A stretch of DNA of 64,000 nt from Rhodoferax sp. OV413. GTDB taxonomy: Bacteria > Pseudomonadota > Gammaproteobacteria > Burkholderiales > Burkholderiaceae_C. The translations under genes were made by a program, and so were the position numbers. Shown piece by piece: positions 1,682-58,521 of the stretch. The notes beneath the pieces were generated by a model. The model was not told the DNA's origin. It worked only from the letters and a program-made list of their open reading frames with translations, and ran no database searches. Location: NCBI RefSeq assembly GCF_900104385.1, contig NZ_FNJA01000001.1, positions 904,386-968,385 on the forward strand. Reading direction: 5' to 3'. The first letter of the stretch is position 1; each line of letters opens with the position of its first letter.

Positions 1682-2008
1682 ATGACCTTGTATTTTTTGA
1701 AAGAGCTGTATCGCAAAACAGGCGACACCTATGTCACCGACCCGGTAGAAATTACCTGGGTACAGCAGTTGAAGCAGCGTGGCTTGGTCGACGCCGAGAT
1801 CGGCCCACCGGTGCTCACCCAGTACCCGACCAAGCCCGCGCGCTATGCCATCGTGCGCGGCCTGACCGACGCCGGGCAATCAGCGCTGGGCATACCGGCG
1901 TTCCAGCGCCTCTCGTTCTGGCGCCAGATATTCGGCCTGAAACCCACGCCGCTGCCAGGAAATCAACCTAACGGCACGGCGGTAACGGGAAAAAACGCCA
2001 ACCGCTAG
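1682..2008 (+). CDS. Hypothetical protein, about 108 residues
   Basis: The frame opens at an ATG at 1652, but the ATG at 1682 is preceded by GGAAAG at 1668-1673 with 8-base spacing, so I prefer it. The product begins MTLYFLKELYRKTGDTYV and looks like a small winged-helix-like fold (helix, short strand, then a segment rich in turns around RYAIVRGLTDAG), followed by a low-complexity tail rich in N, G and T. I cannot assign a family. It stands alone between the membrane protein and the ParB-like gene. Confidence 0.5.
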   Translation: MTLYFLKELYRKTGDTYVTDPVEITWVQQLKQRGLVDAEIGPPVLTQYPTKPARYAIVRGLTDAGQSALGIPAFQRLSFWRQIFGLKPTPLPGNQPNGTAVTGKNANR

Positions 2009-4372: not shown

Positions 4373-4402
4373 TTGCATTACTGTATATTTAAACAGTAAT
4401 TT
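4373..4402 (+). promoter_or_regulatory. Candidate sigma70 promoter overlapping the LexA box
   Basis: TTGCAT at 4373-4378 and TAATTT at 4397-4402 are separated by 18 bases. The LexA-like operator occupies most of the spacer, the classical arrangement for direct repression. The elements are inferred by eye and are weaker evidence than the operator itself. Confidence 0.5.
4381..4396. promoter_or_regulatory. LexA-binding SOS box
   Basis: CTGTATATTTAAACAG matches the CTGT-N8-ACAG consensus of gamma/betaproteobacterial SOS boxes with an AT-rich centre and perfect outer half-sites. It ends 17 bases before the ATG of the radical-SAM gene at 4414, so LexA binding should block transcription of the downstream operon. 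Established knowledge: LexA of beta- and gammaproteobacteria recognises this motif. Inference: the operon is DNA-damage inducible. Confidence 0.85.
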
Positions 4403-4413
4403 TAAAGCACCCC

Positions 4414-5691
4414 ATGGACCTCAATCGCAAGCTCGCCATCCTCGCCGACGCCGCCAAGTACGACGCGTCCTGCGCGTCCAGCGGCACGCTGAAACGCGAC
4501 TCGGTCGGCGGGCGCGGCATAGGCTCGACCGAGGGCGCGGGCATCTGCCACAGCTACGCGCCCGACGGCCGCTGCATCTCGCTGCTGAAGATTTTGCTGA
4601 CCAACTACTGCGTCTACGACTGCCTGTACTGCATCAACCGCGTCAGCAGCAATGTGGACCGGGCGCGCTTTCGCATCGACGAGGTGGTGCAGCTGACGCT
4701 GGACTTCTACCGCCGCAACTGCATCGAAGGCCTGTTCCTCAGCTCCGGCATCATCCGCAGCCCCGATTACACGATGGAGCGCGTGGTCGAAGTGGCCCGC
4801 GTGCTGCGCGAGGAGCACGACTTCCGCGGCTACATCCACCTGAAAACCATCCCCGAAGCCAGCGAAGAGCTGCTGGCCCGCGCCGGCCGCTATGCCGACC
4901 GTCTCAGCATCAATGTCGAGCTGCCGACCAGCGAAAGCCTGCTGGTGCTGGCGCCCGAGAAAGACGGCCAGGCGATCCGCCGCTCCATGGCGCGGCTGCG
5001 CATCCACATCGACGACGCCAAGGCCGGCGCCACACCGCCGCCCGCCACCTCGCAGCCGCGCGTGGCGCCCAAGCGCGCCCGGGCGCCGCGCTTCGCCCCG
5101 GCCGGGCAGAGCACGCAGATGATCGTCGGTGCCGACGCATCCGACGACCGCAGCATCCTGACCACCAGCGCCACGCTGTACGGCGCCTACCAGCTCAAAC
5201 GCGTCTACTACTCGGCCTTCAGCCCGATTCCCGATGCCGCCCGCGGCCTGCCACTGGCCGCGCCGCCGCTGGTGCGCGAGCACCGCCTGTACCAGGCCGA
5301 CTGGCTGATGCGCTTCTACGGCTTTGCCCACGACGAGATCGTCGGCGCCAGCGACGGCATGCTGGCACTCGACATCGACCCCAAGCTGGCCTGGGCGCTG
5401 GCGCACCGCGAACGCTTCCCGGTGGATCTGAACCGTGCACCGCGCGAAATGCTGCTGCGCGTGCCCGGCCTGGGCGTGACCTCGGTGAAGCGCCTGCTCG
5501 CCGCCCGCCGCACCCGCACGCTGCGGGTGGACGACCTGTCGCGGCTGAAGGTGCCGCTGAAGAATGTGCTGCCCTTTATTACCGTGCCCGGTGCCGCGCG
5601 CAATGGGCTGGACGACGCCGATCTGGCGGCCCGGCTGCGGCCGCAACCGCAGCAGCGCTCGTTGTTCGACACGCCGCTGCTCCATGGCTGA
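4414..5691 (+). CDS. DNA modification/repair radical-SAM protein (UDG-linked)
   Basis: 425 residues. The radical-SAM cluster motif CxxxCxxC is at Cys66, Cys70 and Cys73 (CVYDCLYC), followed by the usual barrel elements (GLFLSSGI near 107, YIHLKTIPEAS near 144). A proline/arginine-rich insertion lies at about 203-230, and the C-terminus has a helix-hairpin-helix DNA-binding motif around 350 (VPGLGVTSVKRLLAARR). This matches the uncharacterised family found paired with uracil-DNA-glycosylase-like proteins. The reaction is unknown; the HhH motif and partner point to DNA as substrate. The stop overlaps the next start by 8 bases (ATGGCTGA), so the two are coupled. A LexA box precedes it. Confidence 0.9.
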   Translation: MDLNRKLAILADAAKYDASCASSGTLKRDSVGGRGIGSTEGAGICHSYAPDGRCISLLKILLTNYCVYDCLYCINRVSSNVDRARFRIDEVVQLTLDFYRRNCIEGLFLSSGIIRSPDYTMERVVEVARVLREEHDFRGYIHLKTIPEASEELLARAGRYADRLSINVELPTSESLLVLAPEKDGQAIRRSMARLRIHIDDAKAGATPPPATSQPRVAPKRARAPRFAPAGQSTQMIVGADASDDRSILTTSATLYGAYQLKRVYYSAFSPIPDAARGLPLAAPPLVREHRLYQADWLMRFYGFAHDEIVGASDGMLALDIDPKLAWALAHRERFPVDLNRAPREMLLRVPGLGVTSVKRLLAARRTRTLRVDDLSRLKVPLKNVLPFITVPGAARNGLDDADLAARLRPQPQQRSLFDTPLLHG

Positions 5692-7180
5692 CAGCAGCGC
5701 GCGCACAGTGCAGCTGGTCGGCGAAGACGATGTGCCGGGTTTTCGGGCAGCGGCGCGGCGCTTGCTGGCGCAGGGCGTGGAGCCCGGCCGCATCAGCTGG
5801 CATGTGGCCGGCGCAGCCGAGGGGGATTTGTTTGCGCACAGCCCGGCGGAAGAACCGCCGCCCGATGCAGCAAACAGCGCGGTGCTGAAGCTGCCAGCCT
5901 TCTTCGTCTCGCTGTGCAACCGCACGGCGCTGCATGCCGACCCGTCCCGCTTCGGCCTGCTGTACCGGCTGGCATGGCGCCTGCTGCGCGAGCCGGGCCT
6001 GCGCCACGACCCGCTGGACCCCGACAGGATGCAGGCCGAGCAGATGGCCCGCGTGGTGCGGCGCGACATGCACAAGATGACGGCGTTTGTGCGCTTCCGG
6101 CCGCTGGCCGCACCCACCGACGACGGCTGGGGTGTGACCCACGTGGCCTGGTTCGAGCCCGGGCACCACATCGTCGAGGCCACCGCGCCGTTCTTTGCAC
6201 GGCGCTTTGCGCAGATGCCCTGGGCGATCTTGACGCCCGAGCGCAGCGCGCGCTGGAACGGCCAGCAGCTGGCCTTCGGCCCCGGCGCGCAGAAGTCCGA
6301 TGCGCCGCCGGCCGATGCGAATGAACGCCTGTGGCTCACCTACTATGAAAACATCTTCAACCCGGCGCGGCTCAAGCTGGCGATGATGCACAAGGAGATG
6401 CCGCGCCGCTACTGGAAGAACCTGCCCGAGGCGGTATTGATCCAGCCGCTGACGGCACTCTCGGCCCAGCGCAGCGGCCAGATGGTCGAGCAAGGCGCCA
6501 GCGAGCCAGCCCACCGCCGCCCTGCTGCGTCGATAGCGCTGCGGCTGGACCAGCGGCCGGAAGTGGTGGAAGCCCCGGGCACCCTGGCCGCGCTGCGCCA
6601 GGCCACCGAACGCTGCCGCGCCTGCCCCATCGGCCAGTTTGCCACCCAGGCGGTGCACGGCGAAGGCCCGGTGGACGCGCAGCTGATGCTGGTCGGCGAG
6701 CAGCCGGGCGACCAAGAAGACCTGCGCGGCCGACCCTTCATCGGCCCGGCCGGCCAACTGCTGGACCGCGCGCTGGCCCAGCTGGGCCTGCCGCGGGCGG
6801 CGCTGTACCTGACGAATGCGGTCAAGCATTTCAAGTTCGAGCCGCGCGGCAAGCGGCGCATCCACAAAACCGCGGCGCAGCAAGAGGCCGCCGCCTGCCT
6901 GGACTGGCTGGACCACGAGATCGCCTTGGTGCGGCCGGCCGCGGCCGTGGCCCTCGGCAGCACCGCCGCGCGCGCCCTGCTGGGCCGGCCGGTGGCCGTG
7001 GCCAGCGAACGCGGCCAGTGGCTGATGCGCGACGACGGCCTGCGCGTGCTGGTCACCCTGCACCCGGCCGCGCTGCTGCGCATGGACAGCCGCGACTTCG
7101 ACGCCGCGTTTTCTGCCTGGCTGGACGACCTGGGCAAGGCAGCAAATTTCAACATCAGCCCTGCAGCGCAGGATTTATAA
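5684..7180 (+). CDS. udgX: UdgX-family uracil-DNA binding protein fused to radical-SAM-partner domain
   Basis: 498 residues from ATG 5684 (the frame is open upstream inside the radical-SAM gene). Residues about 1-270 match the 'probable DNA metabolism' domain that accompanies the radical-SAM partner (LYRLAWRLLREPGLRHDPLD, then a WFEPGHHIVEATAPFFARRF segment). Residues about 305-490 are a family-4-like uracil-DNA glycosylase with GEQPGDQED near 339, and the KRRIH loop at 390-394. In mycobacterial UdgX the histidine of that loop forms a covalent bond with the abasic sugar after uracil excision; His394 is the equivalent here. Cysteines of the CRACPIG segment near 310 fit the 4Fe-4S site. The stop codon TAA lies inside a palindromic repeat. 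Confidence 0.9.
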   Translation: MADSSARTVQLVGEDDVPGFRAAARRLLAQGVEPGRISWHVAGAAEGDLFAHSPAEEPPPDAANSAVLKLPAFFVSLCNRTALHADPSRFGLLYRLAWRLLREPGLRHDPLDPDRMQAEQMARVVRRDMHKMTAFVRFRPLAAPTDDGWGVTHVAWFEPGHHIVEATAPFFARRFAQMPWAILTPERSARWNGQQLAFGPGAQKSDAPPADANERLWLTYYENIFNPARLKLAMMHKEMPRRYWKNLPEAVLIQPLTALSAQRSGQMVEQGASEPAHRRPAASIALRLDQRPEVVEAPGTLAALRQATERCRACPIGQFATQAVHGEGPVDAQLMLVGEQPGDQEDLRGRPFIGPAGQLLDRALAQLGLPRAALYLTNAVKHFKFEPRGKRRIHKTAAQQEAAACLDWLDHEIALVRPAAAVALGSTAARALLGRPVAVASERGQWLMRDDGLRVLVTLHPAALLRMDSRDFDAAFSAWLDDLGKAANFNISPAAQDL

Positions 7181-58217: not shown

Positions 58218-58283
58218 CAGCTGCGAAAAAGGGATATCCGTCTGCATTTACACTAGCCGGGTGCGCACCAAAAGGTGTGCCAA

Positions 58284-58434
58284 GCGTTCTCAGGGCGGGG
58301 TGTAATTCCCCACCGGCGGTAATAACAGCAATGTTTAGCCCGCGAGCGCCTGCAGATGGTCAACCATCCGCAGGGTCAGCAGATTCCGGTGCGATTCCGG
58401 AGCCGACGGTGATAGTCCGGATGCAAGAGAACGC
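58284..58434 (+). ncRNA. FMN riboswitch (RFN element)
   Basis: The conserved RFN parts are all present: GTTCTCAGGGCGGGGTGTAA at the 5' side, TTCCCCACCGGCGGTAA, CCCGCGAGCGCC, GGTCAGCAGATTCCGGTG, TTCCGGAGCCGACGGT, ATAGTCCGGATG and the closing AAGAGAAC. P1 pairs GTTCTC with GAGAAC. The element lies about 90 bases upstream of ribH, so FMN should repress that gene. A GC-rich stretch and a T-run (58502-58507) follow, suiting a termination decision, though I cannot fold it. Confidence 0.97.
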
Positions 58435-58521
58435 GTCCCTTACAGCCCTTCGCCGTGCGCGGCGGTGGCTGCGCGGGTGCGCGTGCGTCCTGGGTTGGAA
58501 ACTTTTTTGTTTTGACACCCT

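What the first reader, a model, noticed from the sequence alone, without database searches (positions are those of the whole stretch)
4381..7180. LexA-controlled radical-SAM/UdgX operon of unknown DNA chemistry
A CTGT-N8-ACAG LexA box sits 17 bases before the ATG of a radical-SAM protein with a C-terminal helix-hairpin-helix, coupled by an 8-base overlap to a UdgX fusion whose KRRIH loop keeps the histidine that in mycobacterial UdgX covalently traps the abasic site. The radical-SAM reaction has not been assigned to my knowledge. SOS control plus a DNA-binding motif argue that the pair repairs or modifies a damage-induced uracil or abasic lesion, perhaps by releasing or processing the UdgX crosslink.
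Basis: partly seen in the sequence, partly recalled or inferred. Interest (0 to 1): 0.85.

Follow-up and report, generated by a model that had tools for sequence, protein, structure and literature searches.

The report
SOS-induced radical-SAM/DUF4130/UdgX repair operon
This is a known but biochemically uncharacterised pair of bacterial DNA-damage genes, apparently switched on by the SOS alarm; the sequences suggest that its radical enzyme docks on the replication clamp and that its DNA-trapping UdgX part is an optional extra rather than the enzyme's target.

Summary
In detail: a LexA box (4381-4396) lies 17 bases before a radical-SAM gene (TIGR03916) that overlaps by 8 bases a DUF4130-UdgX fusion with the UdgX signature residues. 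SOS control is well supported by comparison: 29 of 30 same-family loci (window included) keep the box with 0-1 mismatch (1.9 expected), and 63 of 78 named loci have an exact beta/gamma- or alpha-type box (0.55 expected). It is not new: SOS control of the UDG-containing COG1573-COG4277 operon is in print. Releasing the UdgX crosslink is a disfavoured job: 10 of 39 radical-SAM genomes lack UdgX over cut-off, while 39 of 39 have DUF4130; fusion state changes at least 11 times. Not found described in my limited searches: the radical-SAM tail is a clamp-type motif (83 of 86), and three more invariant cysteines precede CxxxCxxC (86 of 86), as in enzymes with an open-site second cluster. Best reading: an SOS-induced, clamp-docked radical-SAM/DUF4130 lesion-processing module with UdgX as optional uracil/abasic-site trap.

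The parts
4379..4398 (.). LexA (SOS) box TACTGT-N8-ACAGTA, core 4381-4396
   Evidence: conserved upstream of orthologues
4414..5691 (+). radical-SAM protein, family TIGR03916 (rSAM_link_UDG), 425 aa
   Evidence: 560.3 bits, cut-off 343.5; PF04055
4471..4575 (+). span holding invariant C20, C45, H46 and C54, candidate ligands of a second [4Fe-4S] cluster
   Evidence: 86 of 86 aligned proteins keep all four; ligand role is inferred
4609..4632 (+). radical-SAM cluster motif CxxxCxxC (C66, C70, C73)
   Evidence: 86 of 86 conserved
5422..5514 (+). helix-hairpin-helix (HHH_3-like), presumed DNA-backbone binding
5653..5667 (+). C-terminal sliding-clamp-type motif QRSLF (residues 414-418)
   Evidence: consensus QL[S/D]LF from PMC3716654 (passages)
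5684..7180 (+). DUF4130-UdgX fusion protein, 498 aa; its ATG overlaps the radical-SAM stop by 8 bases
5720..6433 (+). TIGR03915/DUF4130 domain (residues 13-250)
   Evidence: 211 bits, cut-off 112.25
6437..7132 (+). UdgX domain TIGR03914 (residues 252-483)
   Evidence: 272.6 bits, cut-off 189.95; aligned to solved UdgX
6851..6865 (+). UdgX R-loop KRRIH; H394 corresponds to the crosslinking H109

Best explanation
The locus is an SOS-induced DNA-lesion-processing operon. LexA represses it through 4381-4396; damage relieves repression and both proteins are made together. The radical-SAM enzyme docks on the beta sliding clamp through its C-terminal QRSLF peptide and holds DNA through its helix-hairpin-helix. 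Its CxxxCxxC cluster cleaves SAM to a 5'-deoxyadenosyl radical that acts on a damaged base or sugar at a stalled fork or gap. A second cluster held by C20, C45 and C54 (and perhaps H46) would bind substrate or co-substrate, as in TYW1 or MoaA. DUF4130 is its constant partner. UdgX, fused to DUF4130 here, is an optional module that excises uracil and traps the abasic site through H394. Shown by sequence: gene and domain order, box conservation, residues, clamp-type motif, co-occurrence. Inferred: LexA binding, clamp binding, the second cluster, lesion chemistry. Not known: the substrate.
For: LexA box with 0-1 mismatch in 29 of 30 family loci, the window's own included (expected 0.06 + 1.8; coding control 0 of 30). 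Of the 80 named loci, 78 had enough upstream sequence; 63 of 78 have an exact CTGT-N8-ACAG or GTTC-N7-GTTC (either orientation) against 0.55 in shuffles. A Chthoniobacteraceae locus has TGTTC-N4-GAACA (the form of its phylum, recalled) and a Clostridia locus two GAAC-N4-GTTC. Own genome: one LexA hit with two one-mismatch boxes upstream; of six other genomic box loci looked at, three precede uvrB, radA and a PA0069-family radical-SAM gene, three had no gene that I could recognise as SOS. Clamp-type motif in 83 of 86 tails against a shuffled mean of 6.6 (largest of 1000: 16) and 23 of 1298 internal windows; commonest form QLSLF, 21 of 86 (the pattern was chosen after seeing tails). Six Cys and H46 invariant in 86 of 86. 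DUF4130 in 39 of 39 radical-SAM genomes. E52, Q53, N91, R107, H109, H178 and R184 equivalents in 49 of 49 aligned fused rows, the window plus 48 of 67 fused loci.
Against: No experiment. Short motifs do not prove LexA or clamp binding. No box was found in three Xanthomonadales loci (L122, L123, L150) with the patterns tried, nor in L019, and L110 has none near its start. Three of 86 tails miss the clamp pattern.
Confidence: 0.6

Rival explanations
1. The radical-SAM enzyme reverses or processes the UdgX-abasic-site crosslink.
For: Operon and fusion: UdgX was found fused to the neighbouring DUF4130 in 67 of 80 named loci. UdgX residues needed for crosslinking are intact in the 49 rows aligned.
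Against: 10 of 39 radical-SAM genomes have no UdgX over cut-off anywhere; 13 of 80 named loci have none within the fetched locus; Clostridia and Acinetobacter regions are annotated with radical-SAM plus a DUF4130 protein without UdgX; at least 11 changes of fusion state on the tree. 9 of 38 genomes with UdgX over cut-off have no radical-SAM hit over cut-off; in one of them (G397) the neighbouring DUF4130 hit starts 1,239 bases from a contig end, so a lost neighbour is possible. A secondary role where UdgX is present is not excluded.
Confidence: 0.08
2. A direct-reversal photoproduct enzyme working like spore photoproduct lyase (SplB): radical repair of a UV pyrimidine lesion at the clamp, without a catalytic second cluster.
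For: [quoted passage not shown]
Against: The protein matches TIGR03916 only in NCBIfam at E up to 0.001. Three extra invariant N-terminal cysteines are not part of spore photoproduct lyase as I recall it. No UV data here.
Confidence: 0.2
3. The pair makes a DNA modification or metabolises damaged nucleotides during SOS instead of repairing a lesion in place.
For: NCBIfam names the family 'putative DNA modification/repair radical SAM protein'; three-cysteine second clusters with a free site occur in modifying enzymes such as TYW1, MoaA and MiaB (PMC5352715, passages).
Against: SOS control and the clamp-type tail point to damaged or replicating DNA; no DNA-modification gene is annotated beside the pair in the four annotated regions read.
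Confidence: 0.12

Closest known systems
TIGR03916 / TIGR03915 / TIGR03914 (rSAM_link_UDG, DUF4130, UdgX family)
   Same: Window proteins pass all three curated cut-offs; radical-SAM gene beside a DUF4130 gene in 80 of 80 named loci.
   Different: No difference; this is a member. The model names give no reaction or substrate.
SOS-regulated COG1573-COG4277 operon (Bacteroidetes; reported before in Verrucomicrobia and Alphaproteobacteria, per PMC8565304)
   Same: Two-gene operon with a uracil-DNA glycosylase under predicted LexA control (passages). That COG4277 is this radical-SAM/HHH family is recalled, not tested.
   Different: Here a betaproteobacterium with CTGT-N8-ACAG; the passages that I read treat the operon as base excision repair and do not mention a clamp motif or extra cysteines.
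Mycobacterium smegmatis UdgX (PDB 6AIL and others)
   Same: E 2.7e-50; GEQPG, NAVKHFKF, KRRIH and motif-B H and R kept.
   Different: The solved chains are 205-229 aa; here UdgX is fused to DUF4130 and follows a radical-SAM gene. Motif B reads HPAALLR, so S180 is replaced by A.
Spore photoproduct lyase / SplB-like enzymes
   Same: Radical-SAM enzymes acting on DNA; SplB is SOS-regulated in several species (PMC8565304, passages).
   Different: Different NCBIfam family; HHH, clamp-type tail and three further invariant Cys here (absence of these from the lyase is recalled).
TYW1 (4-demethylwyosine synthase)
   Same: Three Cys N-terminal to CxxxCxxC; TYW1 spacing Cx12Cx12C (PMC5352715, passages), here Cx24Cx8C.
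   Different: Similarity is in cysteine arithmetic only; no profile match to TYW1 was shown (one search lists none). tRNA enzyme, not DNA.

Membership tests
TIGR03916 radical-SAM family | Score over the curated cut-off of 343.5 bits | tested here: met
   560.3 bits
Radical-SAM superfamily | CxxxCxxC cluster motif | tested here: met
   C66, C70, C73; 86 of 86 conserved
UdgX | Q53, R107 and H109 equivalents (R-loop signature, PMC10359453) | tested here: met
   Q340, R392, H394; also in the 48 other fused rows aligned. L142, not among them, shows GEAPG by pattern
UdgX | Covalent, SDS-stable adduct with uracil-DNA | not testable with these tools
   needs protein
LexA/SOS regulon | Conserved LexA box upstream of orthologous operons | tested here: met
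   29 of 30; 68 of 78 counting exact alpha type or CTGT-N8-ACAG with up to 1 mismatch, 4.6 expected
LexA/SOS regulon | LexA binding and damage induction | not testable with these tools
   needs gel shift and RNA-seq
Sliding-clamp clients | QL[S/D]LF-type peptide at a terminus | tested here: met
   QRSLF here, a looser form of the consensus; 83 of 86 tails match the looser patterns, 21 are exactly QLSLF
Sliding-clamp clients | Binding to DnaN | not testable with these tools
   needs protein
Spore photoproduct lyase | Match to a lyase family model | tested here: not met
   only TIGR03916 at E up to 0.001 in NCBIfam
Radical-SAM enzymes with a three-Cys second cluster | Three further invariant cysteines | tested here: met
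   C20, C45, C54 in 86 of 86
Radical-SAM enzymes with a three-Cys second cluster | The cysteines bind a second [4Fe-4S] cluster | not testable with these tools
Anti-phage defence systems | Match in PADLOC-DB | tested here: not met
   none at E up to 0.1

The most novel reading that the evidence does not exclude
An SOS-induced radical-SAM DNA-lesion enzyme that rides the replication clamp and uses a second, substrate-binding iron-sulfur cluster, with DUF4130 as obligate partner; its repair chemistry would differ from spore photoproduct lyase, and UdgX is an interchangeable trap that holds abasic sites for it in some lineages. The PA0069-family enzyme, also LexA-boxed and clamp-tailed, would be a second member of this class of clamp-docked SOS radical enzymes.
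Probability: 0.33. Interest if true: 0.85.

Novelty: new member of a known kind. Interest (0 to 1): 0.52.

Why it matters
The family is annotated 'putative DNA modification/repair' without a reaction. The sequences turn that into direct tests: clamp pull-down with and without the QxxLF tail, iron and cluster count in C20/C45/C54 mutants, and damage phenotypes of a two-gene deletion in a species without UdgX (which removes the UdgX question). If right, a radical enzyme would be placed at the replication clamp during SOS, beside the translesion polymerases.

Tried and rejected
Count-only significance of the LexA box: weak, so conservation was used instead. Orientation error: I read minus-strand loci unreversed, which made 13 of 30 look boxless; corrected. 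Phage origin: one viral contig (L186) and ten 'phage' records; of the two regions that I opened, the Acinetobacter one carries glyS/glyQ and looks like a chromosomal contig and the gut one (L193) has no annotation; no phage system is claimed. Defence system: no PADLOC match. DUF4130 fold: no convincing solved relative (three chains, E 0.64 or worse) and no Pfam match besides DUF4130 better than E 0.056. Other phyla: only single loci read; a phylum search centred on Verrucomicrobiota failed. Rows dropped: Gemmatirosa L191 (35% identity, lacks the three N-terminal cysteines), L186 and L192 are not in the 86-protein set, 49 of the 58 loci L018-L075 gave a readable radical-SAM ORF by my pattern and 9 were dropped, 20 of 30 PA0069 loci gave a readable frame and 10 were dropped; 2 of 80 named loci had under 200 bases upstream; 48 of 67 fused UdgX loci were put in the alignment.

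Literature: ten searches. Only searches put radical SAM together with clamp terms, and I saw 12 of 18 and 15 of 74 listed papers; no listed title or abstract reports a clamp motif in this family. Most subscription journals are not held, and the Verrucomicrobia (PMC4951493), Betaproteobacteria (PMC4507345) and Caulobacter (PMC2238201) SOS papers could not be read. For PMC8565304, PMC3765255, PMC10359453, PMC10776899, PMC5352715, PMC3716654, PMC7739468, PMC9578287, PMC9380542 and PMC1839093 I saw passages only; in PMC12700426 my terms had no occurrence; other papers were seen as search listings.
Full report
What is there. The window holds, on the + strand, a LexA-type box at 4381-4396, a radical-SAM gene at 4414-5691 and a second gene at 5684-7180 that overlaps it by 8 bases. 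NCBIfam names the first protein TIGR03916 (rSAM_link_UDG) and the second a fusion of TIGR03915 (DUF4130) and TIGR03914 (UdgX); all three pass their curated cut-offs (Pfam agrees for DUF4130 and UDG). A LysR-type gene lies upstream on the other strand, with a 95-aa ORF without family match between it and the operon, and an NAD-binding dehydrogenase lies downstream on the other strand. The nearest named rows of the radical-SAM protein on the tree come from Xylophilus, an unnamed Burkholderiales MAG, Acidovorax and Variovorax, so the host is probably a related betaproteobacterium (inference).

Is the box more than chance? By count, barely: 2 in the window against 0.70 expected, with 17 of 100 shuffles reaching 2; 28 against 15 in the genome; and the extended 20-mer is no commoner than its reversed control. 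By context, yes. I looked at six other box loci of this genome: three precede uvrB, radA (both recognised from their translations) and another radical-SAM gene; the other three showed no gene that I could recognise as SOS. The single LexA hit has two one-mismatch boxes upstream. In 30 radical-SAM loci from the same family, the window's own among them, 21 have the exact box and 8 have one mismatch within about 250 bases upstream, against 0.06 and 1.8 expected from Markov shuffles; no coding-region control window of 30 reached 0-1 mismatch; the one miss is L019. Those 30 were the loci returned for 39 genomes with a hit among 200.

Across lineages. Of the 78 with enough upstream sequence, 57 have the alphaproteobacterial direct repeat GTTC-N7-GTTC in either orientation (0.5 expected), 13 have CTGT-N8-ACAG with at most one mismatch (4.1 expected), 68 have one or the other (4.6 expected), and 63 have one of the two exactly (0.55 expected). 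The Caulobacter, Bacillus and E. coli box forms are listed in PMC9578287 (passages). Of the 10 without either, four (L118, L141, L166, L182) are one mismatch from the alpha form; the Chthoniobacteraceae locus L178 has TGTTC-N4-GAACA over its start (its phylum's motif as I recall it); the Rhodospirillales locus L125 has GAAC-N4-GTTC; the Xanthomonadales loci L122, L123 and L150 have nothing that I could recognise with the patterns tried, one of them a recalled Xanthomonas motif; and L110 has nothing near its start. In Clostridia (L188) two exact GAAC-N4-GTTC boxes precede the small gene upstream of the radical-SAM gene. So LexA-type boxes follow the operon through changes of the LexA motif.

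That control is not a discovery. [quoted passage not shown] That COG4277 is this radical-SAM family is from memory. PMC3765255 (passages) already ties DUF4130 to SplB-like radical-SAM proteins and uracil DNA glycosylases.

What is constant and what is optional. The same 249 genomes of the phylum were searched with the three models. Over cut-off: radical SAM 39, DUF4130 41, UdgX 38. All 39 radical-SAM genomes have DUF4130; the two extra DUF4130 genomes are G397, whose hit starts 1,239 bases from a contig end, and G413. Only 29 of 39 have a UdgX over cut-off (the other 10 have none or a weaker, below-cut-off UDG-family match), and 9 UdgX genomes have no radical-SAM protein over cut-off. In the 80 named loci, DUF4130 was found in 80, UdgX was fused to it in 67, and no UdgX was found in the locus for 13 (several loci are short or end near a contig end). 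On a quick maximum-likelihood tree of 86 radical-SAM proteins the fused/unfused state needs at least 11 changes (27 of 83 inner forks have support under 80, and the four non-proteobacterial or Acinetobacter rows have long branches). Clostridia and Acinetobacter relatives carry DUF4130 proteins of 285 and 265 aa without UdgX. UdgX therefore behaves as an add-on, and an enzyme whose purpose is to free UdgX from DNA should not persist without it so often.

The UdgX part looks active. It aligns with solved UdgX at E 2.7e-50. The residues that PMC10359453 calls crucial (E52, Q53, N91, H109, H178, R184) and the signature R107 are kept in 49 of 49 aligned fused rows, the window plus 48 of 67 fused loci; one fused locus outside that set, L142, shows GEAPG instead of GEQPG by pattern. 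Three cysteines that I take for cluster ligands (recalled) are each kept in 46 of 49. Motif B reads HPAALLR here. The same paper says the physiological role of UdgX is largely unknown and proposes that it protects abasic sites, with adducts resolved by RecA-dependent pathways or proteases (passage); an SOS-controlled fusion fits that idea.

Two features that I did not find described, within the limited searches told under Tried and rejected. First, the radical-SAM C-terminus: after a variable, gappy linker the proteins end in QxxLF or a related hexapeptide. In 86 proteins (the window, 80 named loci and L188, L189, L190, L193, L194) the pattern is in the last 25 residues of 83, against a shuffled mean of 6.6 (largest of 1000 shuffles: 16) and 23 of 1298 internal windows; the commonest form is QLSLF (21), and the window has QRSLF at residues 414-418. 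The pattern was written after seeing tails, and it is looser than the published clamp-binding consensus QL[S/D]LF (PMC3716654, passages). The tail is kept in Fusobacterium (QLKLF), Clostridia (QLSLF) and Acinetobacter (QLSLGF). Second, C20, C45, C54 and H46 are invariant in 86 of 86, before C66-x3-C70-x2-C73. [quoted passage not shown] A second cluster here is inference; the structure tool was off.

A parallel. The genome's PA0069-family radical-SAM protein (NF033668, 457.7 bits, cut-off 360) also has an exact LexA box and ends QSSLF. Of 30 loci fetched for 44 of 60 genomes with a match, 20 gave a readable frame, the own copy included; 20 of 20 end in a clamp-type motif and 17 of 20 have a box with at most one mismatch, against 1.7 expected. 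Clamp-docked SOS radical enzymes may be a wider theme.

Mechanism and verdict. Most likely LexA release gives co-expression; the radical-SAM protein joins the clamp and holds DNA by its HHH (profile matches to ComEA and RuvA HHH chains are weak, E 0.03-0.13; HHH_3 in 22 of 22 members at E up to 10, best 7.6e-6); with DUF4130 it converts a lesion by radical chemistry; where UdgX is fused, uracils or abasic sites are trapped beside it. I give this 0.6 as an architecture and make no claim about the substrate. The locus is a new member of a known kind; the clamp-type tail, the cysteine pattern and the dispensability of UdgX are what make the open question testable.

Noticed in passing
L002:335-1483 (-) = G000:C9:59876-60952 (-) and around: A PA0069-family radical-SAM gene in the same genome has an exact TACTGT-N8-ACAGTA box and ends in the clamp-type QSSLF; 20 of 20 readable loci (of 30 fetched, own copy included) share the tail and 17 of 20 have a box with at most one mismatch.
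   Followed up: partly
window 1706-1721: A second CTGT-N8-ACAG lies inside the ORF 1652-2008 and is probably chance.
   Followed up: no
window 58282-58436 (+): FMN riboswitch (RF00050, 113 bits), the only Rfam match at gathering threshold in the window.
   Followed up: no
L122, L123, L150: Xanthomonadales copies of the operon have no LexA box that I could recognise; their control may differ.
   Followed up: partly
L192 (CAKLQH020000003.1): A record filed as 'Acinetobacter phage MD-2021a' (240 kb) carries glyS/glyQ and other chromosome-like genes beside the radical-SAM/DUF4130 pair and looks like a misfiled bacterial contig.
   Followed up: partly
L191 (Gemmatirosa plasmid): A 35%-identical relative keeps CxxxCxxC and a QLSLW motif near its end but lacks the three N-terminal cysteines, and the next ORF read is not DUF4130; possibly a different function.
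   Followed up: no
L194 (Azospirillum sp. TSH100 plasmid p1): Beside this copy of the operon lie metK (SAM synthesis, divergent) and, further on, mtnA (methylthioadenosine salvage); possibly SAM supply for the radical enzyme, possibly chance.
   Followed up: no
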